Shown here one piece after another: positions 17,010 through 43,706 of a stretch of DNA of 64,000 nt (the stretch's first letter is position 1; every line of letters starts with the position of its first letter). The stretch comes from Ascaphus truei. Lineage: Eukaryota > Chordata > Amphibia > Anura > Ascaphidae. A model generated the notes under the pieces. It was not told where the DNA came from, did no database searches, and was given only the letters and a program-made list of their open reading frames with translations. The stretch covers positions 10,508,441-10,572,440 of the forward strand of contig CM071574.1 in NCBI GenBank assembly GCA_036426205.1, given 5' to 3'. A program made the translations under genes and the position numbers.

Positions 17010-17053
17010 CTCACAGACAGCTGTTTCGACCTTTTGGGTCTCATCAGTGTGAG
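17010..17053 (-). ncRNA. Minimal type I hammerhead ribozyme
   Basis: Read on the minus strand: stem I strand CUCACA (17053-17048); core CUGAUGA (17047-17041); stem II GACC/GGUC closed by CAAAA (17040-17028); core GAAA (17027-17024); stem III made of the palindrome ACAGCUGU; cleavage triplet ending GUC at 17016; stem I partner UGUGAG (17015-17010). All conserved core bases are present and both stems pair perfectly. The palindromic stem III is typical of minimal hammerheads that cleave well as tandem dimers. Self-cleavage is predicted, not shown. Confidence 0.88.
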
Positions 17054-28294: not shown

Positions 28295-28598
28295 GGGCTC
28301 TATGCAGTAAGCGCCGAAAAAGTGCAATCGCCAAGGGTACCTTATCGGCATGATTCTGCCGATTTTCCCTCTCCGTATGCAATAAGTGCCAAATCCCTTC
28401 CGAATCAAGCCGAAAACATTTGCTCCCACTCTGCCGATGATTTGCCGATCACACACAGGTGTATCAGCGTGCATGACAAGGTGGTGTTAGGTTCCCCAAT
28501 TAAACTTCTTGCTGAATCTGCCGAAGCAAGCATGTTTTGGATTGAGCAGCCCATTTAAAGGCAGCGTGTATTTTTATTCATTCTCTGTGTTGTTGAGA

Positions 28599-28631
<33 letters not shown>

Positions 28632-28660
28632 CTTGCCGATTTACATATTTCATATTGACT
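28295..28660. promoter_or_regulatory. Harbinger left TIR and subterminal TGCCGAT cluster
   Basis: After the TIR, TGCCGA/ATCGGCA motifs occur at about 28347, 28364, 28433, 28442, 28518 and 28635. The same motif is dense at the other end (43450-43680). In Harbinger elements subterminal repeats are bound by the transposase and the MYB-like protein; that role here is inferred. Confidence 0.65.
28594..28630 (+). repeat. (GA)n/(CA)n microsatellite
   Basis: A pure GA run followed by CACACACA, just upstream of the MYB-like gene. Confidence 0.9.
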
Positions 28661-29967
28661 GAGACAGTTGTGGTGTATTGTGAGAGGTTTGTCCTGTGTT
28701 GTTTTGTTTACATCTTTGTCTTGTTTTCACTTTGTAAGTGTTCAATGCGATTGTCTTTAAATTTCTTTTCTGTTCTTTGTGAGTGCTAGAGGTATGGCCG
28801 CAAGACGTGGGAAGAGTGATGCTGGTGTGAGTGGTACTGGTAGTCGTGTGAGTACGCATCTGAGTGAACGTAGGATTCAGGGGAGGGCTGTTGCTGCGAG
28901 TGCGAATGGTGTTGCTGGGAGTGCGAGTGGTGTTGCTGTGAGTGCGAGTGCTGCTGGTGGCTCTGTTGCTGGTGCTGCTGGGGTGTCTGGTGGTGGGGTG
29001 GTTGCTGGTGGCCTGCTTTTGGAGTCTCTTCCATTGGAAGGAGAGTCCAGTCAGCAGCAGCCAAGCTCTGGGCCTGCACGTATTCGGAAGAAACGTGTGG
29101 AGCGGCCACGTAATCCTCGGTTCAATGAAGAGGAAAACACAGTTCTTGCCACAGGGATTCTGGAGCACTATGACTGTCTGTATGGGCATATACTAGGTAA
29201 GTCTATCTTTGCATTGATTCTTTAAAGACATGTTATCCTAGGTCATGTGAGATGTCTTAATATCAAAATATTATTCTATAATATCTATCAATTAAACTTA
29301 ATTGTTACACACATATTCCTTCATGCTTTAGAACGACCATAACAATCAGTCTAAAAATGTTGCCAAAGTTCATACAATATTCATGCAAGCTTCCTTACAT
29401 TTGTATGTTTACACGAAAATGCTCATGTGGTACACATATTACACCTAAAGCAGCATGTTTGGTATCTCTTGGAACAGGTAGCAGTTTAGGAAACTGATCG
29501 TTTTTATAATAATAATTAACGTCATATATTTTGTATGTATTTCAAGGGCGGATAAGTTCAGCATCAAAAAAAGAAATGTGGGATCAAATAACCTTGGCTG
29601 TGTCTGCGTGTGGGAATCATGTCAGGGACCGGGCGAATTGTCGGAAGAGATTCGATGATATCAGGGCAAACTTAAAGAAAAAAATACAAGCACAACCGAT
29701 GCATGCTTCTGGCACTGGAGGTCGGCCGCCAGCACAATCTCTAATCTTAACACCATTGGAGGAGCAGATGCGGGAAAAATTTCTTCCTGTCGTCGTGGGG
29801 GGTTTGCCCGGGGACAGAGATATCGGAATTTATCCGGCTCCATTTCCACCAGGTGACAAATGTTACTGTACTAGGCGTGTCGTAGGTTACAGTTCTTATC
29901 TATATTTCCGCAGCTACTTATACTTTCTTCCCAATATAAGCATACCTACATATATATATCTGTATAT

Positions 29968-29974
29968 ATGTCTC

Positions 29975-30027
<53 letters not shown>
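29968..30027 (+). repeat. (CTAT)n microsatellite
   Basis: About 13 tetranucleotide units in intron 2 of the MYB-like gene. Confidence 0.95.
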
Positions 30028-30067
30028 ATTTATAGCTAGTTGTCCAACAAAAAGTAAAAATTAATAT

Positions 30068-30240
30068 ATATGGTGGCAAAAGGTGGCACTGAGTGCCCAT
30101 TTACATGTCATTTCCCAGCATCCCTTGCTGCAGTGGAAGCGCTGTATGCTGGCCGATAATGGGGAAAGACAGGGTTGCAGACCTGTCTAAGACATACAAA
30201 TGAGCATACAGCAATATTTACAGTTGCTATATATATATAT
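30068..30240 (+). mobile_element. Truncated, inverted copy of the ~400-bp hammerhead repeat
   Basis: Carries CCCAGCATCCCTTGCTGCAG, GACAGGGTTGCAGACCTGTC and CAGCAATATTTACAGTTGC, the reverse complement of the unit in 35819-36952. The hammerhead part is missing. It lies in the MYB-gene intron, between microsatellites. Confidence 0.75.
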
Positions 30241-32394
30241 ACATAAATTAGTGATAATCTATGTTACACCTATAAACAGGCCATTACTGCCTCATCAAGT
30301 CTGGCATGGAAGATAGTGCATTCAAAGGCGAACATTCATAATTTGCACAAACACATTTCGTTATGTTTAATTAAAGATTTTTTTTCGCTTCATGTAGTAT
30401 ACTGAGAGCATAAATAGGAACATGTACCATATGGCACTTAATTGTGTTCATATGTAGCTCACTTCAGATTTGTCTTTCGCTTATGTACCGGTGTGTGAAA
30501 CTAGCTACATTTATTATGTAATCACAGCATAGAGGAGAACACAGGGGTGGGGTTGGGCATCGAGCCAGATCACAGGGTCATGTTACGGTCAAGTCTTGTG
30601 GGACGCCTTACAGGTGGTAGAAACAAATAAAAGGTCAGGGTGCTGTCACGTCTTGGGGGAGGGACTACAGTTGTTAGAAGCTGACAAGGTGAACAGAAGT
30701 TCATCACATTCATTTGAAATGGTAATTCTATAAAAACTTTCACCCACCAGGCCACTATATATGAAAACGTACGTTACTCATTCGTTCACTCATATCTTCT
30801 TTTAACCTTATAGATACGCCACATTGTCATACCAGTAGCATCTCTGAGCGACACACTAAATGTGTTGATGAGTGTCAGCCACATTGAGCGCTATACCTGC
30901 TTCTCTTAAATGTTCGGACAGATCTCTAAACACATTTATACACATTTCCACAATTAGGTACTGAATTATAAGCAAAGTCAACTTTGCTGGCATGGTAGTG
31001 ATGTACATTATTATTGTTAGAGTACTACACAACATATGCAGTGTATGTCCAACAGAACACTTAATTTTACAACGCATTCCTGCATGAACATTGTATGTTG
31101 TATGCTTTTTACAATAAATGTGCCAATTAGGTTCACATGTACATTGATGTTAAGATGGATAATGTACAGCTTGGCAGAAACATATTGTCATTTCATTATG
31201 TGATGCTGATATTTAGCCATAAATACTCCCACTACACAAACTTTATGTTAATTATGTACACATGTCAATAAAATTCTTATGTTATTCTTCTATATAGTTG
31301 CTCCTGAAGCTCATGTGTCACCTGACACTGAACATGTCTCATCACCTGGCTCATCCAGCTCATCATCAAGCATGGAAGATGAGTGTATGAGGTGCAGCAC
31401 ATCTAATGTGTGCATTTCTAGATGTTAATTTGCCATGCTAAATAAATGCCTTTCACATGTAATTAATTTCACATCAGTTATTGTCACAGAATATGTAGTT
31501 TTTCATGACAACATCTATTGTGTGTGTTGTAAACTATCAGCTAGGAGTTGTGAGGTTACAACAACCTTTCATTCATTCTTCTTTCACACTGAGTCAAAAC
31601 ATAATTGTTACTTCAAGCATAAACTTTTAAATAGACACAAATTAAAAATTATGGAAACATGTTATGTGTTACACTGTGAGAACAACTCTCATTATATTGA
31701 AAAAAAAGTGAAAGTTCCATGGCAGTTCATAATGTCTTTCTTTATTTGTAGAAGCAGATGTTGCCAATCAAGGACAAATTCACTCAAGTGACCATGAAGA
31801 TGTTCCCACTCGTGGATTAACCCAGCATTCAACTCCTCCTGCTCGTGACACCTACTCAGCTATTGCAGCTTCTAAAGAAAGAATCTTGGGTGAAGAAAAT
31901 CGTCGCCATTCTGAAATGATGTCAGTGCTTGAAAGGATGATATCACCGCAGGAAAGGACAATATCACAAATGTTACAAATTGAAAGAGTCATCATCCAAG
32001 TTCCTAAAGAAATACAAAATTTAAACAGGACATTACAAGCAATAGTTGTGAATCCAAGCCAAGCAAATCAGTTGCAAATTACTGCTAGAGAACAACAATT
32101 CCACTTTACCCCACCTGAGGATGGATCTTTACATGCTGCTACTTTTTCATCAGTTCTTCATTCCCCAGTTGTGCATGATACCGGTACAGTAGATGCAAGT
32201 TCTGTGCAGGTCCCTGTCAACATCCAACCGCTTACATCTGTTCAAAATCAGGAACGGACACCTACAAATGAGACACGAAAAAGAAAGTTCGGGCAACAAT
32301 TACTACTAACCAGCTTTTGGAAAAAGATTAAAACACCAAAACAAGAAACTGCTCAAACCTCAGTCGTGCAATGTTTAGCAACTGGTTCTTAACT

Positions 32395-32690
32395 GCCACA
32401 GCCCACACCCTGTGCCCCTGAAGTGCCACAGCCCACACCCAGTGCCACTGAAGTGCAAAAGCCCACACCCAGTGCCACTGAAGTGCAACAGCCCACACCC
32501 AGTGCCACTGAAGGGCAACAGCCCACACCCAGTGCCCCTGAAGTGCAACAGCCCACACCCAGTGCCACTGAAATGCCACAGCCCACACCCAGTGCCCCTG
32601 AAGTGCAGCAGCCCACACCCAGTGCCACTGAAGTGCCACAGCCCACACCCAATGCCACAGAACTGCCACAGGCCAGTACAAGTCGTACAG
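32395..32690 (+). repeat. 30-bp coding minisatellite (decapeptide repeat)
   Basis: Ten units of 30 bp, each CAGCCCACACCCAGTGCCACTGAAGTGC-like. In the MYB-gene frame they encode PQPTPSATEV-type decapeptides. The frame stays open to TAA at 32780-32782. Units differ mostly by single substitutions without frame loss. Confidence 0.9.
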
Positions 32691-32782
32691 TTAAGGCCAA
32701 AGTACTTGGCAAATGGAAAAGGCAAACACAACAGCCAACAAGCAGGCCTGTGACTCGCTCTCAAAAGGATAAACAAAAATAA

Positions 32783-33353
32783 ATAATCACATTCACTAAA
32801 TGTGTTGGTGTCCTGGTGGTGTTTACTGCACACTATTTCATGCATAGTGTATGTATTATCATGTACAGATGCTTGCTAACATTCAAGTATGTCCTTGTAC
32901 ACATGAATGTTTAGAAATGTTCACTGACTGAATTAAGGCATATTTAAAAACATATGAATATGTATTAATCATCAGTTGATTAATGGTACAAAATTACACA
33001 CTAGCCATGTTTATAGAAGCTGACATTCACTTAGCTCTTGTTCAAGATGAGATGTATGTGGGTTTGTTTGGTAATGTAGATAGTCATTGCAAGCTAATAT
33101 TATTGACATACAACTTTAAGTAACTATCCATATAACAGCATACATTTTGATGTTGTGTTTTCTGGTGTCTTAACTCTGTAACACATTACTTACCTTAACC
33201 TTCTTTCATAGTTCATAATGTTGGCATGTGATCATGTATGATTTTTGGTTACAATAACAGATCTGTTATTGTGTATGAATATATCTGTAGTCTCTCTGTA
33301 TCTCTATGGATATATGTATACACACACAGTGTGTGAGTGTGTGTGTGTGTATA
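32783..33353. other. Harbinger interior, AT-rich non-coding
   Basis: No coding signal. It ends in GT/TA microsatellite sequence (33325-33361) in which the hAT-like element is inserted. Confidence 0.55.
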
Positions 33354-33404
33354 TATATATACAGTGTTCGACAAATCACACAAAAATCTACTTGCCCAAC
33401 CAAA

Positions 33405-33492
33405 AAATCTACTCGCCCCCTAGTCCCGCCCCCAACTCCGCCCCTAGTCCCGCCCCCAACTCCGCCCATAGTACCGCCCCCAACCCCGCTTT
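33405..33492 (+). repeat. 24-bp tandem repeat (CCCGCCCCCAACTCCGCCCCTAGT)n
   Basis: Three to four units of CGCCCCTAGTCCCGCCCCCA-type sequence. Confidence 0.85.
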
Positions 33493-33537
33493 AAAATAAA
33501 ATATATAAATAAAATACATTTAATAAATTCCTAGTCA

Positions 33538-34130
33538 GAACAACACAGGGAGAGGGGAGGGTGACACAGGGAGAGGGGAGGGTGACACAGGGAGAGGGGA
33601 GGGTGACACAGGGAGAGGGGGAGGGTGACAGGGAGAGGGTGGGTGACACAGGGAGAGGGGGTGACACAGAGAGAGAGTGGGTGACACAGGGAGAGGGTGG
33701 GTGACACAGGGAGAGGGGGACACAGGGAGCGAGGGGGAGGGGGTGGTGACACAGGGGAGAGGGGGAGGGTGACACGGAGAGGGGAGGGTGACACAGGGAG
33801 AGGGGGAGGGTGACACAGGGAGAGGGGGAGGGGGTGCACCAGGAGAGGGAGGGTGACACAGAGGGAGAGGGAGGATGGACACAGGAGGGCGAGGGTTGAC
33901 ACAGGGAGAGGGAGGGAGGTGACACGGGAGAGGGAGAGGGTGGGTACACGGGAGAGGGAGAGAGGGTGGTGACACAGGAGGAGAGGGAGGGTGACACAGG
34001 GAGGGAGGGTGACAGGGAGAGGAGAGGGGTGACACAAGGAGAGGGAGGGTGTCACAGGGAGAGGGGAGGGGTGCACAGGGAGAGGGAGGGTGACACAGGG
34101 GAGAGGGAGAGGAGGGGTGGGGGGGGGACT
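33538..34130 (+). repeat. About 20-bp minisatellite GGGTGACACAGGGAGAGGGG
   Basis: Some 25-28 degenerate units with small length changes. Both strands give long open frames because the unit lacks stops; they are not genes. Confidence 0.92.
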
Positions 34131-34329
34131 GACACACTCCCACTCACTCAGACAACACTCACTCAGACAACTCACAATCACACAATCACCAGTCTGTCAC
34201 TCACCACACACAAACACTCACCAGTAGGCAGGGGGTCGCACATGGCAGCGGGGCCTCGCACGGCAAGAGGGCTCCTGCAAGGGCCCGCCCCCTCCAGAGT
34301 GGGACGCTGATGCCGCAGTATTCACTGAT

Positions 34330-35120
34330 GATGTAGAAGGGCCGGTAGGGTATTTCCCTGCTTAGGCAGGGAGAGGCTCGGTAGGGTATTTCCCCTGCTT
34401 AGAGCAGGGAGAGGCTCCGGTAGGGGATTTCCCTGCTTAGAGCAGGGAGAGGCACCGTTAAGGGATTTCCCTGCTTAGAGCAGGGAGAGGCACCGTTAGG
34501 GGATTTCCCCTGCTTAGAGCGAGAGGCCAGAGGCACCGTTTAGGGGATTTCCCCTGCTTAGAGCAGGGAGAGGCTCCGGTAGGGATTTCCCTGCTTAGAG
34601 CAGGAGAGGCTCGGTAGGGGATTTCCCTGCTTAGAGCAGGAGAGGCTCCGGGGATTTCCTGCTTAGGCAGGGAGCTCGGTAGGTATTTCCGCTTTTAGAG
34701 CAGGGGAGGCTCCGGTAGGGGATTTCCCCTGCTTAGAGCAGGGAGAGGCTCGGTAGGGGATTTCCCCTGCTTAGAGCAGAGGAGAGGCTCCGGGTAGGGG
34801 ATTTCCCTGTTAGAGCAGGGAGAGGCCACGTTAGGGATTTCCCTGATGAGCAGGGAGAGGCTCCGTTAGGGGATTTCCCCTGCTTGAGGCGGGAGAGGCA
34901 CCGTAGGGGATTTCCTCTGCTTAGAGCGGGAGAGGTCCGGTAGGGATTCCTGCTAGAGCAGGAGAGGCACCGTAGGGTGTTCCTATTCGAGGCAGGGAGG
35001 CACCGTTAGGGGATTTCCCCTGCTTAGGCAGGGAGAGGAGTAGGGGTTAGAGGAACAGTTAGGGTTTCCCCTGCTTAGAGCAGGGAGAAGAGCCAGTTAG
35101 AGGATTCCCCTGCTAACAAC
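34330..35120 (+). repeat. About 40-bp minisatellite with two palindromes per unit
   Basis: About 20 units. Each contains GGGGATTTCCCC (a palindrome that also fits the NF-kB consensus) and CCTGCTTAGAGCAGG (a hairpin), followed by GAGAGGCTCCGGTA or GAGAGGCACCGTTA. Several units have lost bases. Confidence 0.9.
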
Positions 35121-35199
35121 TGAGCTGGCCATCAGGGGTTTCCTAACAGCTGACAGATCGGCAGACTGTCCGTAGAGGCGGCACACCGACGCCGCGTGG

Positions 35200-35450
35200 G
35201 GTGAGGGGGGGGGGTACGGAGGCGGGAGAGATGGTGTGTGAGGGGGGGGGGGGTGGCGGATGGCAGCTGCGAGGGGGGGGGAGCGATGGAGGGTGGGGGG
35301 GGGGCGGGGGGTCCGGTGCGAGGGGGGGGCGAATGGCCGGTGCGAGGGGGGGTGGGTGGGGGGGGCCCGGTGTGAGGGGGGGCCGGTGGCCCGATGGAGG
35401 GGGGGGAGGATGGCCCGATGGAGGGGTGACAGATGGCCCTGCAGGGGCCT
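35200..35450 (+). repeat. G-rich low-complexity block
   Basis: Long G runs separated by CGGTGCGA and CCGATGGA-type words. Several G-quadruplex-type tracts. Confidence 0.9.
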
Positions 35451-36065
35451 GAGGCAGACAGGCGTGGAAGGGTGGCTGCGGAGAGGAGGAGGATGTAGAA
35501 GCCGCTGAGGAGGGAGGCCACTGCTCAGAGAGCCGGAGGCGGGTAACTCCCCCAGCAACATGAACCGCCTCCGGCTTTTTTTTTTTCTCCGCGCGAGCGC
35601 GGGAAACAGCACAGCACGAGCGCGGGAAATTTAATAAAACACCAGTGTGCTGCTTGGGCCAATTTACTCGCCGGGGGTTAAATCTACCCGCCCGGGCGAG
35701 TAAATGATATATAATGTCGAACACTGTATATATATATAACTGATAAAACAGTTATATACATATATAATCTATCTATCTCTATTCTTATAATCTATACAGA
35801 TCTATATATATATATAGAAAAAATGTAATTTACTGTAGTTCATTTGCATGTCTTGAGAGAGGTCTGCAACACCTGTCTTTCCCATTGTCACCCAGCATCA
35901 GCACTTCACTGCAGCAAGGGATTCTGGGAAATGACATGCAAATGAGCACTCAGTGCCACTTTTGTCTCAAGCTCGTATTACACAAGCCAATCCTCAAGCC
36001 AAGCATGCTGTTTTAAACACAGCTTTTAACAGAGGGGGGGATGAGATGCAAAGCCATTAGACCTA

Positions 36066-36107
36066 CTCACATACATGTTTCAACCATGATGGGTATCTCA
36101 GTGTGAG
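36066..36107 (-). ncRNA. Hammerhead remnant, array unit 1
   Basis: Stem I CUCACA/UGUGAG is intact, as are the palindrome ACAUGU and GAAA. The CUGAUGA core has lost one base and reads CUGAGA. Probably inactive. Confidence 0.6.
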
Positions 36108-36463
36108 GCTGGTCTTAATGGCTCGGTTTGAGACTAGAATAGTAATCACCACTGTCATTAAGGTTATGGTGGGTAAAAAAGTGACAAAAACCCTCCACAG
36201 TAAAGCATAAAGCAACTGTAAATATTACTGTATGTTCATTTGCATGTCTTAGACAGGTCTGCAACCCTGTCTTTCCCCATTGTCACCCAGCATAAAGCAC
36301 TTCCACTGCAGCAAGGGATTCTGGGAAATGACATGCAAATGAGCACTCAGTGCACCTTTGTCTCAAGCTCGTATTACACAAGCCAATCCTCAAGCCAATG
36401 CATGCTGTTTTAAACACAGCTTTTAAACAGAGGCTGGGATGAGATGCAAAGCCATTAGACCTA

Positions 36464-36505
36464 CTCACATAATGTTTCAACCTTGATGGGTATCATCAGT
36501 GTGAG
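36464..36505 (-). ncRNA. Hammerhead, array unit 2
   Basis: CUGAUGA and GAAA cores and stem I CUCACA/UGUGAG are intact. Stem II UACC/GGUU has one mismatch and stem III (ACAUU) is degenerate. The best-preserved of the three array copies. Confidence 0.65.
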
Positions 36506-36860
36506 GCTGGTCTTAATGGCTAGCAGGTTTGAGACATAGACAGGTCATCAACCACTGTCATTAAGGTTATGGTGGGTAAAAAAGTGACAAAAACCCTCCA
36601 CAGTAAAGCATAAAGCAACTGTAAATATTACGGTATGTTCATTTGCATGTCTTGACAGGTCTGCAACCTGTCTTCCCCATTGTACCCAGGCATACAGCAC
36701 TTCCCCTGCAGCAAGGGATTCTGGGAAATGAAATGCAAATGAGCATCAGTGCCACCTTTTTCAAGCTCGTATTACACAAGCCAATCCTCAAGCCAAGCAT
36801 GCTGTTTTAAACACAGCTTTTAAACAGAGGCTGGGATGAGATGCAAAGCCATTAGACCTA

Positions 36861-36903
36861 CTCAACATACATGTTCAACCTTGATGGGTATCATCAGTGT
36901 GAG
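36861..36903 (-). ncRNA. Hammerhead remnant, array unit 3
   Basis: CUGAUGA and the ACAUGU-type palindrome are present. GAAA reads GAAC and stem I has an inserted base. Probably inactive. Confidence 0.6.
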
Positions 36904-36952
36904 GCTGGTCTTAATGGCTAGCAGGTTTGAGACTAGACTAAGTAATCACCTA

Positions 36953-37165
36953 TATATATATACACACAATATATAGTTAATTATATATAGATAAATATAT
37001 ATATATCCAAATATATATGTATATATTTATTTATATATATATATATATCTATGTATATATCAAGAGAGACTAACAGAGAGAGTCAAAGAGAGAGAGAAAA
37101 GAGAGCGAAAGAGAGATAAACAGACTGAGAGAAAACAGAAAGAGAGACAAACAGAGAGATGTGTG
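36953..37165 (+). repeat. TA-rich then GA-rich simple sequence
   Basis: (TA)n with interruptions to 37060, then AGAGAGA-rich purine sequence. Confidence 0.9.
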
Positions 37166-37508
37166 TGTATGGTTACATCTAGCTAAGTGTAACCAGAAAT
37201 CTGTTCAGCATTGCACTGTAGATGATTTCACACACATTGTTATTGTAATTCAAAGAGTCTACTTGTTTTGCACATGTTGATTGCCTAAGTCGAAAGTAAA
37301 GTTTCGATTCCTGTGAAAAGAGTATCTTACCCAAAGAATTCCAGCCAATTATTGTAACAAATTTCTTGTGGGTGAAAACCTAGGCGTATAACTGCTATGT
37401 TGTATTATAACCTTGGAAGAAACCGAGAAGATAACATGTAACTATTCACACATTCAGCAGACATCTGTATGCGTTCAACTTCATACAACGTACACTTGGA
37501 GAGAAGAA

Positions 37509-38147
37509 ATGGCAGAAGCTTCCACATTGCACAGCCATCCACGTAAATCATACAAATGTATGATTTATGAAGCAATCGGATCAACGCCAGAGAAAAGTGC
37601 AAACGTGGCCAAAATCTATGACTAGATCGAAAAAAAATATCCATACTACCAACAACCTGACATACAACGAAATTTTGAAACTTCTGTACGATTCACTTTA
37701 TCCGCAAATGAATGTTTTGAGCGTGTCCATGATCGGCTAGATAAACGATATGGATGCTGGCATGTTGCGCCATCATTTAAACTTACCATGGAACATGGAA
37801 CATATCTTCTGTTAAATAGCATATTTTTGCCTAATACCAGTGACACTGAAGCCGCACCGACTGTCGCGTCTGCTGATCTACCTGTACCCTCCATTTAGCC
37901 AGCCCAGATGCAAGATGGACATAACTACTATGATATGTATCCAAACTTATATGGGCAATATCAATGTGGATGGGAAAACAACCAAGAACTGTACATACCT
38001 CCGGATGTCTTGTATGAAGAAGCCACTGCAGATCCATATGATGCCCTCATGGAGATGTGTGTGATTCAGGATTCAACGGTTGCCTCAACCATGTATGATA
38101 CTGTTGTGCCTTCCTGCAGCGAGCAGTTGCAGCCAAATCAGTTTTGA
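37509..38147 (+). pseudogene. Forkhead-like (winged-helix) gene inside the Harbinger element
   Basis: From the ATG at 37509 one frame runs 212 codons to TGA at 38145, broken only by two TAG codons (39 and 130). Codons 13-102 fit a forkhead domain: KSYKCMIYEAI then STPEK (helix 1), AKIYD and IEKKYPYYQ (helix 2), TSVRFTLSANECF (recognition helix 3) and YGCWHVAPSF (wing region with Trp 84). The tail is acidic and Tyr-rich. The canonical helix-3 RHN is RFT, so DNA binding may be altered. It sits on the same strand as the MYB-like gene, between it and the transposase. Identity rests on motif order only. It could be a captured host gene or an accessory gene of this transposon lineage. Confidence 0.6.
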
Positions 38148-38399
38148 CTTCTACAAGAATGGTAAATACAAATTTCGTTATGCCTTTACTCAAATTATAT
38201 ATGTGTACATTAATAATATACACCATTTGTTAGCCAAATGAGTGGATACAGCTTAACATTGCAGACAGGCTTACATGTAGCGTGCACAAAGACATTATTT
38301 CCTATAACAATTAACTACATGACGAACCATTAGTACACATTGGTGACGGAGTCCTAAATCCTAGATTATTATCGCTTTTAAAGTATCATTTCAACATGT

Positions 38400-39050
38400 T
38401 ACACTAACTGTAACACACACACACACCTCATTGTTTAGCATTCAACATATAAAAACAAAGCGTCGCCCACATATGACGTGGGACCGTGGTCATGTCCCAA
38501 GGCGTCCTTAAAAAGGTTTACCGATGCAAGCCCCACCCCCAACCGACGTGCCCGTGTGAAACCGTATTGGCTGTGCCCGTAGCTTATTGTTACGGTCAGT
38601 GCAGTGGTGTCATGCGCGCGCGTCGGTGGGGCGGTGCATGCACAGCGCTGGAGGCCAATGTTAATTCAGTGGGAGGGGTGTTTGCGTGCATTTCACGGTG
38701 CCTTAACATGACGTCACACGTCTTTTGTTCGCTCATTGGCTGATCGTCCGTTTTTTCCATGGGCACACGTCCGTTTACAAAGTTTAGATATGTACGTCTG
38801 TAGAAGTGAATTTGTTTTGCTTCCATATCATTACTTCCAGCCATGATATGCGTACTGCTAGCAGCACCATGGAGGGACATGTATTGAACGCACAGCGTAC
38901 ACATCGTTTTGCGCATGCGCTAAGACTTAGTCCACACATTCGTGACGTGCGCGCGCAACAGACGTTGTGCGCGCACATTATTATGTATACAGGCACCAGA
39001 AAAATTATATCAGTAGTAATGCCAGCAACGCCATTTGAAAAATGACGCAG
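38400..39050. promoter_or_regulatory. CpG-rich segment with NRF1-like motifs in the Harbinger interior
   Basis: Contains ATGACGTGGG, GCGCGCGCG, GCGCATGCGC (about 38910) and GACGTGCGCGCGC within otherwise AT-rich DNA, downstream of the forkhead-like gene. It looks promoter-like. The function is inferred. Confidence 0.35.
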
Positions 39051-41000
39051 TTCTGTATCTGTAGTTTTATCCTTGCAGTTTAAACATATATGTTACTTAT
39101 GCGCGAATATCCACAATCATATAGAGATGTGTTAAGCGTTGTCATGCTGAGACATATATAAATGTGCCATCTTTGAACATCATGTGTTTGCTGTATTTCA
39201 CAGATGTCGCGGATGAATACATGGGACCAATGTATGATTTCAGATGAGCCAATCACTACATAATGTTATCCTATTATGCAAATATTTACTATGCACTTAA
39301 TTAACATAATGATGCTGCTAAGCACTGAAGTTAGAACTTATATATTTTTTTGGTTATTTTCTACTAACATTATATGTATTGCCATGTGATATATGCAACC
39401 AACATTATCACTCAGCAAACACATTAATCTACTATATATTATAATCTCACGTGTGACTTGTCAAATAATGTAAATGCTACATAACAACTCGTAGACATTG
39501 TATCTGAACTATACACAACAACAATAGGAGGTGATAGGAACTGTTTAGTCGTGTGCATTTTATCTTTTCACCTAAGTTGTAGTGCTAACCTAACATGCAT
39601 GAGCTAATGAATATTAGTTAAAGATCATGAAACCATGAACATGTGTGTGTAAATTTTATTCACACGACTAACTATAGATTAGTGTTATTATTAAACGTTG
39701 AACACATACATAGCTAAGTGAGGCCGATGATAAAAGCAACATTATTATGTTGGTTTAAATTATTTCACGTAGCAATACATGCATCACACAAAAACTACAA
39801 CACACACACACACTGTTGCTGAAATGTGTGCGTATGCAAATGTCCACTTCATTTATATTCATATGTTGACATTAGTTATAAAGGATCATGATCATTATGA
39901 ATAACTAACGTGAATGAAATAAAAATTATATTAACAACATTGTCATTGTGTTGAATGAATTAGGAAAAGTTGAGAATCCAAAGAACTATACTTTGGAATG
40001 GTGTTAACATTTTGACACATGTTACATGTACGTCAAATCAACACACATCTTTCACTTATACATACACATGTGACAATGTAGTAATCAACATGAAGATGAA
40101 GTGATACAACAACTAATCACATACATTGCAATGTTAATGATGTTTAAAACATTGGTGTCTTTTCATACAAACATGCATTGAGTGTTAACATCGCTCATGT
40201 GCATCAATGGATGTTCTCCTCCCATAATCAATAGCTGAGCAGGGTTTATCCCCTTCTCTCCCCCCACCCCTATATTCCATGAATGGATGTTGTTACGTTT
40301 GCTAAATTACATGTTATGTAATGTCCCTAATGATTTTAAAAGACACGGCACAATAACCACCAAGTGTAGCTAAACGCACGTACACAATACAGAAACGACA
40401 TGTTTCAATTGTCACATCTTTTTCATTACGTTCTGTTTATACATCCTGTAACTATACCAGTATCGAGGTTTGCACATCTTATGACAGATGTGAATTGAAA
40501 TACATACCATGAGCAGTCATTGAAGTGATATACCTTGACAAAGAAAACATGAATGAATATAAATCATTGTCATGACATGTTCATTATGGTAAGCAACACA
40601 CAAAATAAACCATTTTGTGTGTGATATGAAACAACATCTAGAATACGTCAAATATGATCTGAAATACACAATAGTGTACACATCATTGTGACTCACATGT
40701 CACACTGCAAAAGAAACATTGTATGTAACCATACTGCACTAGCTATTGACTATGGACATAGTAGGTTTATTGTGTATGCATAACCAAAAAGAGCATGTAC
40801 ATAAATTATAGATTTAGTACACATTATTTCTTCACGTACACACAACACCTTTTATTGGTAAGAAGTATAATACAACCTGTTGATGAATGACATACCGGTG
40901 CCACATACAATTGTCCACACAGCAGAGAAGAGAAAGGTTTGCGAACCATATTCATCTGTTTCCTAAGTGAATGGTATTTGGACAAATGTATTTATCATAA
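39051..41000. other. Harbinger interior, AT-rich non-coding
   Basis: Many ACATGT and CACATG words but no tandem period, coding frame or nested element that I can define. Confidence 0.5.
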
Positions 41001-41026
41001 CAAAGAATGAATACATCTATGTAGTA

Positions 41027-42368
41027 CTATGAACATATATGTATTTGCTTACATGAAAAATATGTGTTTATGACATTCAGACGTGTCTCAACACCACTGG
41101 CTGTTTGGTCATTGTCAGCTGGTAAATTGACGGGATGCTCCTCCTCCAAACCCTGACGTATGTCTGTTTGTACATTATTGCGGAGTGCCACATTGTGCAA
41201 AATGCAACATGCAATTATAATATCAGACACTTTAGCAGGCTTATATTAAAGTGCCCCACCAGTTCTATCGAGACACCTAAATCTTGTCTTGAGAAGCCCA
41301 AATGTCCTCTCTATGACGGATCGCGTAGATATATGGGCAACATTGTACCTCTCCTCTGCTTCACTTTGAGGGTTTGCCACAGGGGTCAACAGCCACGGCC
41401 TAATTCCATATCCTGAGTCACCTATAATCCATCGTGCACAAATATGAAACAATTAGTGTTAACATTATTACATACAACATTTCCTAGAAAACCAAGAGTT
41501 GTTTGTTAACACATCATAATATGTACTCACCCACCAGTCAACCAGGTCCAAAATAGCCTTCTTCGAAAGCATGGAAGACTGATGAGTTTCTCAGGATAGA
41601 GGAATCGTGACTGGAACCAGAGAATTTGGCTACCACATTCATAATCTTCATCGTGGCATCGCATACCACCTATACATTCAGGGAATGGTAGTGCTTACGG
41701 TTGCGGTAAGCATGCTCACTCTGACTAGGCGGGATCAAAGCAACATGGGTGCAATCTATTGCACCCATCACACATGGTATCCTGGCTATGGTATAAAAGC
41801 CATTCCTGACTTCCAGACACTCTGTGTTCTCTGTAGGAAAATGAATATAATTCCTAGCACGTCTATTGAGTGCACATAGAAACTGGGTAAAGGCCCGCGA
41901 GAATGTAGATTGCGAGACCCCGCCCACTATGCCCACGGTTGTCTGGAATGACGTGGAAGCAAGATAATGTAATGAGCACAGCATTTTAACAAGCCCAGGG
42001 ACTGCACGACCTCTGGCTGTCACAAAATCTAAATCTCCACGTATCTCTTCATAAAGAGCTAAGATTGCTGCTGAACTCAAACGATAGCGACTTATAATCT
42101 CCTCCTCACTCATCCCATTTAACAGGGTTCTCTCCCTGTACAAACGAGGACGAGGCACAACTTCTCTCCTCTCTCTTCTCCTCTCATCTCCTTGCCCTCT
42201 CCCTGTCCCTCGACCTCTCCCTCTCCTGTCCGCGTGCCTGCCCCTGTCACTGTCCCTGCCACTGTCCCTGCCTCTGTCCCTGTCCCATCCTTGGCCTGTG
42301 ACATCCTCTCCATCAGCAAGCCTCTCGTCCAATAGAATGTTCCTCCGTCTCATAAACATTTGCATCAT
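41027..42368 (-). pseudogene. Harbinger DDE transposase (HARBI1-like), two exons, three stops
   Basis: Exon 1 runs 42368-41531 and exon 2 runs 41421-41027. The GT-AG intron is 109 bp and the joined length is 411 codons. The N-terminus has an Arg/Asp/Gly-rich run, then an HTH-like part (ISRYRLSSAAILALYEEI). DDE motifs are CVMGAIDCTHVAL (first D), a GSSHDS box (second D) and RSVIERTFGLLKTRFRCLD (E); DIIIACCILHN is the conserved end. In-frame stops are TAG 41670-41672, TGA 41538-41540 and TAA 41246-41248. Harbinger transposases cut and paste the element with the MYB-like partner. This copy cannot make full-length protein. Confidence 0.88.
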
Positions 42369-42419
42369 TTTCAGGTCTGTAGCTGTGAATGCGCAGGTAA
42401 TTGCCCTCCTTTAAATACC

Positions 42420-43400
42420 TATGTGATGATGTCAGGTGACTTGCTGAAGTGCAAGGTGTTACATTTACATATCCAAGTAGTTCACTCCCAACGTCTATCC
42501 ATTAGCAATTAAAATAAGTATTTATGTGTGTTCAACAGGCAATCATGATATTTGAGAATGATGTACCGTTAAGCTTTGTCCAAGCATTTATTGTCAAGTA
42601 TTTCTGGAATGTGTCATGCATGTACCACTTCAGAACGCAACACTCAGTCATCTAATTAGGATACAACCATGACATTGACGTTGATAAACTACCTTGCAAC
42701 ATGTGTAATTTGGCATGTTATTGTCACCTGTTCACATTAAGTTATTGTTATGTGCATATGCATAATTTAATGGCATCAGGATAGTTGCTATTGATTCAGT
42801 TTCAATCGTGTAAAAATGAGTAACTATTCTAGATGTGTGTATAAGTTAGCATGAAGTGATTGTAATGCATCGTGTACAATGTAAACATGCAATGTTATTG
42901 AGTGTCCAATTGCGGACGTCATGAAAAGAGGGAGGTCAGAACGTACATGTAAACATGAAAACAAACAGCTACATTTACGTTTGATCATGTGTTACACATT
43001 ACAAGCATTGTATAATGTATAGCAACATTACTATACGCTGGATGTGTTAGATGTGTGAAATGTGTTACATCATATAATAAATTGAAGCACACTTAAGTAA
43101 CATGTTTGATATGATGTGACCTGTTCCTTTAAGAGTTGAGTATAGGATTTTCCCTTGACACATCATAACATTAAGACTAATGTGACACGCAAATCATCAT
43201 AACATATAAAAGTACAATGTTATGCAAATAATAAACGTAAGGGGTGGCACGATGAAGTGAATGACCTCGACACTGTAATGCCAAGCACATTTTTATTATG
43301 AGCAATAGAACGTAAACAGTCCTATAATGTTATAAGTCCCCGCTCCATTGACTCCATTGATGTAGAGATGAGGTTTTTTTTCTAAGTGCCGTCCCGGCAA
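42420..43400. other. Harbinger interior upstream of the transposase
   Basis: AT-rich, presumably holds the transposase promoter. No motif stands out. Confidence 0.4.
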
Positions 43401-43439
43401 CCTTGCCAATCGTTCTCCCCTCCAACTTGCCAACTTTAG

Positions 43440-43706
43440 TTGGCGGGACCAATTGCCGATGAAATCTCCATTTCTGAGTGCCGATCAGCACCGATAAGCT
43501 GATCGGGGCTACTTGAATACAGCCGATTTCAGAAAGTGCCGATAAGTGCCGATAAGTGGGTTATTGGCAGCCGCATGCCGATAAAAAATTTTCAGCAAGA
43601 AAAACTGCCGATTTTGACCACTTATCGGCGCTTACTGAATCTCAAATCCAATTTTGGTGGGAAAATGCCGATAAAAAGCCTTATTGGTGCTTACTGCATG
43701 AGGCCC
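43440..43706. promoter_or_regulatory. Harbinger right TIR and subterminal TGCCGAT cluster
   Basis: At least eight TGCCGAT/ATCGGCA motifs in 230 bp, several as GTGCCGATAAG in tandem (about 43538-43560), then the TIR ending AGGCCC at 43706. Confidence 0.7.

What the first reader, a model, noticed from the sequence alone, without database searches (positions are those of the whole stretch)
37509..38147. A forkhead-like gene carried inside a Harbinger transposon
Between the two standard Harbinger genes lies a 212-codon frame with forkhead-domain order: KSYKCMIYEAI-STPEK, AKIYD-IEKKYPYY, TSVRFTLSANECF, GCWHVAPSF. The element's own TIRs enclose it. Harbinger/PIF elements are known for a transposase plus a MYB/SANT-like protein; I know of no forkhead accessory gene. 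It could bind the ends, steer integration or drive element transcription. Helix-3 RHN is RFT, so its DNA specificity may differ from host FOX proteins.
Basis: partly seen in the sequence, partly recalled or inferred. Interest (0 to 1): 0.88.

Follow-up and report, generated by a model that had tools for sequence, protein, structure and literature searches.

The report
Harbinger transposons carrying a forkhead gene
A jumping-gene family present in many copies in what is very likely the tailed frog's genome carries, besides the two genes usual for its kind, a third gene for a forkhead DNA-binding protein, the type animals use as gene switches, which likely helps the element control its own activity.

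Summary
It lies inside a 15.4-kb PIF/Harbinger element with inverted ends at 28295 and 43706, a MYB/SANT gene and a reverse-strand DDE transposase. It is not a one-off: the same genome lists 149 further copies of the frame, 82-94% identical (a capped list); 23 of 40 drawn at random have no stop. Of 150 forkhead hits, 31 have a separately listed transposase within 20 kb, all 31 downstream on the opposite strand; uniform placement predicts 0.3. Three divergent families carry it; their forkheads group together against 22 Fox domains, support 99/98. Not every copy has it: of 12 transposase copies drawn from those without a listed partner, 6 showed none of this family's forkhead. Function is inferred: a basic forkhead plus an acidic tail suggests an element-encoded transcription factor. 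Host: very likely Ascaphus truei.

The parts
28295..43706 (.). PIF/Harbinger element, 15.4 kb including nested sequence
   Evidence: TIR pair; MYB, forkhead, transposase inside; colinear second copy over 30042-33328 and 36953-43448, whose right end also aligns to the window's right end
28295..28312 (+). left terminal inverted repeat GGGCTCTATGCAGTAAGC; flank CTA
43689..43706 (-). right terminal inverted repeat GGGCCTCATGCAGTAAGC; flank TTA
   Evidence: aligned right end in a second copy
28342..28640 (.). left subterminal repeats (TGCCGAT, 5 copies)
43454..43673 (.). right subterminal repeats (TGCCGAT, 7 copies; TGCCGATAA, 4 copies)
   Evidence: 12 of the window's 15 TGCCGAT and 5 of its 5 TGCCGATAA lie in the two subterminal stretches
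28794..32782 (+). MYB/SANT-like gene, several exons, limits approximate; Myb_DNA-bind_5 match at about 29549-29689; one in-frame stop near 32390 in the last exon
   Evidence: E 5.8e-5, 23.4 bits against cut-off 21.7; frames and splice sites read by eye
37509..38147 (+). forkhead gene, 212 codons, broken here by TAG at 37623 and 37896
37536..37781 (+). forkhead domain (residues 10-91); helix-3 segment TSVRFTLS = residues 58-65
   Evidence: predicted fold, helped by an alignment of Fox proteins, matches forkhead structures
37782..38144 (+). C-terminal tail; its last 106 residues are acidic (16 D/E, no K/R)
38450..39000 (.). CpG-rich block in the element body, promoter-like by its motifs, role unknown
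   Evidence: also present in the second copy
41027..42368 (-). DDE transposase (DDE_Tnp_4) in two exons, two in-frame stops in the first; probable intron near 41437-41530
   Evidence: intron read by eye
33350..36950 (.). sequence upstream of the forkhead that does not align in the second copy; taken as nested repeats, not part of the family body

Best explanation
This is a PIF/Harbinger DNA transposon that carries a third gene, encoding a forkhead DNA-binding domain followed by an acidic tail, which likely serves the element as its own transcription factor. Shown by calls: the homology, the element around it, the gene order MYB (+), forkhead (+), transposase (-), the many copies, the three families, and the grouping of their forkheads apart from 22 Fox domains. 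Inferred: that a Fox gene was captured once before the three families split and then kept; that the protein enters the nucleus, binds element DNA through a winged helix whose recognition helix was altered family by family, and recruits the transcription machinery through its acidic tail, so that transposase and MYB are made in the right cells. The window's own copy looks dead (stops in all three genes).
For: Forkhead profile and predicted fold. TIRs and subterminal repeats. 149 other listed copies of the frame; 31 forkheads with a listed transposase within 20 kb (30 different transposases, the window's pair included), all in one order and orientation, 0.3 expected under uniform placement. A second copy colinear at 80-96% DNA identity with an open 212-codon frame. 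In 10 forkhead-first loci MYB lies upstream on the same strand in 9 and transposase downstream on the opposite strand in 8. Two family-A elements have both TIRs without mismatch (18 of 18), one of them 10.66 kb with TAT on both sides. Between families the domain has pS 0.66-0.74 against pN 0.40-0.49, frames open. Element forkheads one group, 99/98. Tail: 16-17 D/E and 0 K/R (W); 11 and 1 (A); 16 and 6 (B).
Against: No expression, binding or genetic data. Inside family W shared changes are not depleted in replacements (N/S 4.33 against 2.25 for private ones, p = 0.22). Canonical Fox sites (RYAAAYA) are not clearly enriched at the ends: 1 in the first and 5 in the last kb against 2.9 per kb overall in the window element, 1 and 3 against 3.1 in family-A copy c05. 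No family-W forkhead in 6 of 12 transposase-first stretches, so some copies do without it. 119 of the 150 forkhead hits have no listed transposase within 20 kb; both lists are capped, so this cannot be read either way. The 10 forkhead-first loci were chosen for long open frames; of them c08 lacks a MYB match and c07 and c09 a transposase match within the 20 kb read. Family B is one locus. The acidic tail as activation domain is an analogy.
Confidence: 0.55

Rival explanations
1. The forkhead protein is a structural partner of the transposition reaction: it would bind the family-specific subterminal repeats and help pair or present the ends, beside or in place of the MYB protein.
For: Two families were compared and each has its own subterminal repeat (W TGCCGATAA, A ATGCACTAAG), and the three families have their own recognition-helix letters (W TSVRFT, A NSIRRT, B NTVRHT). 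The gene sits beside both transposition genes.
Against: In zebrafish Harbinger3_DR the MYB-like protein recognises a subterminal motif (PMC9710019, passages). Two or three families are too few to test covariation, and MYB and transposase diverge as well. No family-W forkhead in 6 of 12 transposase-first stretches.
Confidence: 0.22
2. The forkhead protein acts on the host: it would bind chromatin like a pioneer factor, steer integration to open sites or shift host gene expression.
For: A Fox domain bound to a nucleosome is among the structural hits (8vfy, FoxA1). Family B keeps the canonical N and H of helix 3.
Against: Families W and A have changed one or both of those residues. No insertion-site analysis was made.
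Confidence: 0.15
3. The forkhead is passive cargo or a nested insertion that happens to ride in some elements.
For: The window copy is broken; 6 of 12 transposase-first stretches show no family-W forkhead; no within-family selection signal.
Against: Same order and orientation in 31 forkhead-transposase pairs, colinear body in another copy, open frames in three families with near-saturated synonymous change. No poly-A run follows the frame; the inverted-repeat pairs that bracket it in the listing (25 of 53 pairs shown) are a GT/CA simple repeat (83%) and pairs of 71-76%.
Confidence: 0.05

Closest known systems
PIF/Harbinger DNA transposons (Harbinger3_DR of zebrafish; newt Harbingers with a Myb-like gene)
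   Same: DDE_Tnp_4 transposase, MYB/SANT protein, TIRs starting GGG, subterminal repeats, short AT-rich flanks (family features from PMC9710019, PMC4482050, PMC5741667, passages only)
   Different: A third, forkhead gene; 10.66 kb for one complete family-A copy against an average of about 4.1 kb for candidate autonomous PIF/Harbinger families (PMC4482050, passage); target duplications not clearly TWA
Fox transcription factors (FoxA, FoxG and FoxC nearest by score)
   Same: Whole forkhead profile, predicted winged-helix fold
   Different: 23-35% identity to 20 Fox proteins; two residues longer before helix 3 than 19 of those 20; N and H of NSIRHN replaced by T and F; grouped apart from the Fox domains tested
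KolobokP transposons with a homing endonuclease; fungal DNA transposons with a TET/JBP enzyme (PMC9587614, PMC12730594; titles and abstract starts in a listing only)
   Same: A DNA transposon lineage with an extra protein-coding gene
   Different: Other transposon lineages, and enzymes rather than a transcription-factor fold

Membership tests
PIF/Harbinger | DDE transposase of the DDE_Tnp_4 type | tested here: met
   Pfam PF13359 E 3.1e-17 and 6.8e-14 in two frames; nearest protein is HARBI1-like of Microcaecilia, 54% over 81% of the query
PIF/Harbinger | second gene with MYB/SANT domain | tested here: met
   PF13873 E 5.8e-5, over cut-off; upstream of the forkhead in 9 of 10 other loci
PIF/Harbinger | terminal inverted repeats | tested here: met
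   15 of 18 in the window; 18 of 18 at both ends in two of 10 other loci, one end only in further loci
PIF/Harbinger | TWA 3-bp target duplication | tested here: inconclusive
   CTA/TTA in the window, TAT/TAT and ATT/CTT in two family-A copies
PIF/Harbinger | two genes only (most families) | tested here: not met
   third, forkhead gene; [quoted passage not shown]
Forkhead (PF00250) | profile score over the curated cut-off | tested here: met
   66.5 bits against 27
Forkhead (PF00250) | winged-helix fold | tested here: inconclusive
   Model with an alignment of Fox proteins: pLDDT block means 78-95 over residues 11-90, matches FoxA2 and others, but the alignment biases it; without alignment mean pLDDT 42
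Forkhead (PF00250) | helix-3 Asn and His of NSIRHN | tested here: not met
   T and F in family W; in A mostly N and R, in B N and H. Asn165 role: PMC6009666 passages; the His role is recalled
a named Fox class (A to S) | grouping with one class | tested here: inconclusive
   best hits spread over FoxA, G, C, yeast Fkh1 and FoxN3 within 6 bits; in the tree no Fox row joins the element group, but most rows were unnamed and I added no class K, M, O, P or H domains

The most novel reading that the evidence does not exclude
An old amphibian lineage of three-gene Harbingers captured a Fox gene once and turned it into a self-serving, re-targetable DNA-binding protein whose recognition helix changes family by family together with the element's subterminal repeats.
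Probability: 0.35. Interest if true: 0.9.

Novelty: new variant of a known kind. Interest (0 to 1): 0.8.

Why it matters
PIF/Harbinger elements are described with a transposase and a MYB-like partner (PMC9710019, PMC4482050, passages). A forkhead as a lasting third gene means that a classical developmental transcription-factor fold has become part of a selfish element. It offers a natural experiment on how a Fox recognition helix changes specificity (three families, three helix-3 versions) and a source of Fox-like proteins that annotation may mistake for host Fox genes.

Tried and rejected
Rejected: one-off insertion or processed Fox pseudogene. Rejected: that a MYB gene is absent; my first scan of 36.2-46.1 kb showed none, the wider scan found it. 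A first TIR search failed because it asked for an exact 3-bp duplication and five of the first six bases alike, which these ends do not have. I first took the transposase as frameshifted; on rereading it has two in-frame stops and a probable intron instead. Single-sequence structure prediction was useless. No relative of the forkhead reached E 0.01 in the protein database (31 candidates, length-limited, two X in the query); all three protein searches were then used, so other amphibians could not be searched with the open family A and B frames. Literature: in the held open library showed no title or abstract start on a forkhead gene in a Harbinger (shown: 3 of 3, 0 of 0, 25 of 397, 25 of 312, 25 of 29, 40 of 96, 6 of 6 papers); PMC9341512, which holds all the words, was not opened; Repbase and subscription papers were not searchable, and the coelacanth Harbinger paper is not held. 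Within-family test for purifying selection gave no signal (7 of 41 rows of other length dropped). In the first tree two host rows had been read wrongly; they were dropped and the tree rebuilt. Canonical Fox sites at the ends: not clearly enriched. Family B's subterminal repeat: no clear word found in the one end seen.

Full report
OBSERVATION. The frame 37509-38147 on the + strand reads as 212 codons with TAG at codons 39 and 130. Read with X at the stops it matches Pfam Forkhead at E 2.3e-18 over residues 10-91; the piece before the first stop and the piece between the stops match alone at 1.5e-4 and 7e-8. The best solved relatives are FoxA1, FoxA3 and FoxA2 domains at about 1e-9. Two stops in this length are far fewer than dinucleotide shuffles give (mean 12.6; as few in 0.2% of 500).

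THE ELEMENT. Six-frame Pfam scans at E up to 1 found only Forkhead (+) and transposase families (-, two frames) in 36.2-46.1 kb, and only a MYB/SANT domain (+) in 26.5-36.4 kb. GGGCCTCATGCAGTAAGC ends the element on the right (43706); its partner GGGCTCTATGCAGTAAGC lies at 28295, 15 of 18 alike; shuffles give 0.03 matches per window at up to 3 mismatches. The flanking triplets are CTA and TTA. The repeat TGCCGATAA occurs five times in the window, all in the two subterminal stretches, and 12 of 15 TGCCGAT lie there. The order is MYB (+), forkhead (+), transposase (-). All three genes bear in-frame stops here (two in the forkhead, two in the first transposase exon, one in the last MYB exon as read by eye). 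Other repeats sit between MYB and forkhead (33.35-36.95 kb).

HOST. The transposase is closest to amphibian HARBI1-like proteins (caecilian Microcaecilia 54%, Xenopus 49%), and a short piece is 85% identical over 34 residues to a predicted protein of Ascaphus truei whose contig is 330,573,056 bases long. Contig C1 of the window's own genome has exactly that length. The host is thus very likely the coastal tailed frog; this rests on that match.

NOT A ONE-OFF. A Forkhead search of the own genome scored 150 of 12,894 first-look candidates, all 150 over the cut-off. By score, 21 rows of 107 bits or more look like ordinary host Fox genes and the other 129 lie at 73-94 bits, many with frames near 217-225 codons (this split is by eye). 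A search with the window's frame listed the window copy and 149 others, 82-94% identical over nearly the full length (150 of 11,190 candidates scored, so a lower bound). Of 40 drawn at random from the 149, 23 have no in-frame stop. A separate search with the transposase listed 140 copies (140 of 16,801 candidates scored). Of the 150 forkhead hits (window included), 31 have a listed transposase within 20 kb (30 different transposases). All 31 are downstream on the opposite strand, 19 of them 3.35-3.81 kb away, the range being 2.1-8.2 kb; uniform placement predicts 0.3 pairs. The other 119 have no listed partner, which two capped lists cannot interpret.

SAME PLACE, SAME BODY. One such copy (C3:131431300-131443299) aligns on the same strand with the window element over 30042-33328 (80-82% identical), 36953-39254 (92%) and 39250-43448 (96%), with an open 212-codon forkhead; the window's 33.33-36.95 kb stretch is not aligned there, and its right end aligns through the right TIR. 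The left end of that copy was not fetched.

COPIES WITHOUT IT. I drew 12 transposase copies at random from the 53 on contigs C1-C30 that had no listed forkhead partner and read 3 kb at the expected place. Six hold family-W forkhead sequence, whole or in part (L033, L034, L039, L040 with an internal deletion; L032 and L035 only its end at the edge of the stretch). Three hold MYB sequence there instead (L030, L036, L038; L038 shows a deletion from about 37482 to 39488 in window terms; L030 also has a weak, 27% hit to a forkhead at its edge). Three hold neither (L029, L031, L037). So the gene is not in every copy, and the draw was from the copies least likely to show it.

THREE FAMILIES. Ten loci with 216-225-codon forkhead frames were read with about 10 kb on each side. 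Nine are one other family (A), one is a third (B), by alignment. MYB lies upstream on the same strand in 9 of 10 (not c08), transposase downstream on the opposite strand in 8 of 10 (not c07, c09), both in 7 of 10. Family-A elements end in GGGGGCTATGCACTAAGC, akin to the window's TIR; two loci have it at both ends without mismatch, one of them a 10.66-kb element with TAT on both sides. Between families the domain's synonymous sites differ at 66-74% and replacement sites at 40-49%; the tails at 79-90% and 51-56%. Frames that stayed open over such a distance speak for long-term constraint. A tree of 16 element forkheads and 22 Fox domains (six rows from this genome, two of them identical) puts all element forkheads on one side, support 99/98, with W and B together at 96/92. 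B is a long branch, and I added no Fox class K, M, O, P or H domains.

RESULTS AGAINST. Within family W, private changes have N/S 2.25 and changes shared by four or more copies 4.33 (34 rows of equal length; p = 0.22): no sign of selection between these copies, as expected if most decay after insertion, but also no support. Pairwise dN/dS inside family A ranges from about 0.3 to 1.4. The ends are not clearly rich in canonical Fox sites in the window element or in family-A copy c05.

HOW IT LIKELY WORKS (inferred). The domain is mildly basic and the last 106-108 residues are acidic in the three families (W 16-17 D/E and no K/R; A 11 and 1; B 16 and 6; four proteins counted), the layout of a transcription activator. 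The residues at the first and fifth places of Fox NSIRHN are T and F in W, mostly N and R in A, N and H in B; the Asn is the conserved adenine-contacting residue (Asn165, PMC6009666 passages). The subterminal repeats differ too: TGCCGATAA in W, ATGCACTAAG in A; none was clear for B. I therefore favour an element-specific transcription factor, with end binding as the main rival. I put the identity (a forkhead gene belonging to Harbinger elements) at about 0.95 and the mechanism at about 0.5.

NOVELTY. Papers seen in passages describe PIF/Harbinger with two genes (PMC9710019, PMC4482050) and newt Harbingers with a Myb-like gene (PMC5741667); a fish survey (PMC9179366) has no occurrence of forkhead in its text. 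Seven searches showed no forkhead Harbinger among the papers they listed. Repbase was not searchable, so a database-only description is possible.

Noticed in passing
17010-17053 (-): Type I hammerhead ribozyme (Rfam 43.6 bits) in a repeat about 78% identical to the 398-bp tandem repeats at 35830-36950 inside the element.
   Followed up: no
33350-35738: Possible nested element: 24-bp perfect inverted repeats at 33350-33373 and 35715-35738 around low-complexity GC-rich repeats.
   Followed up: no
38450-39000: CpG-rich block (observed/expected 1.18 over 38501-39000) with TGACGTCA, GCGCATGCGC and CCAAT words downstream of the forkhead; also in the second W copy and in one of two family-A copies looked at. 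Possible internal promoter of unknown direction.
   Followed up: partly
32394-32675: The MYB gene's last exon holds about nine 30-bp tandem units encoding PTPSATEV-like repeats.
   Followed up: no
P0143 (protein database): A predicted Ascaphus protein joins a transposase piece of this kind to a YIP1-type membrane protein: gene fusion, exonised transposon or annotation error.
   Followed up: no
L041-L080, forkhead residues about 30-36: Family W seems to have two sub-groups, SANVAK and RATVGQ (and variants), that differ by several replacement changes in a row before helix 2 (by eye).
   Followed up: no
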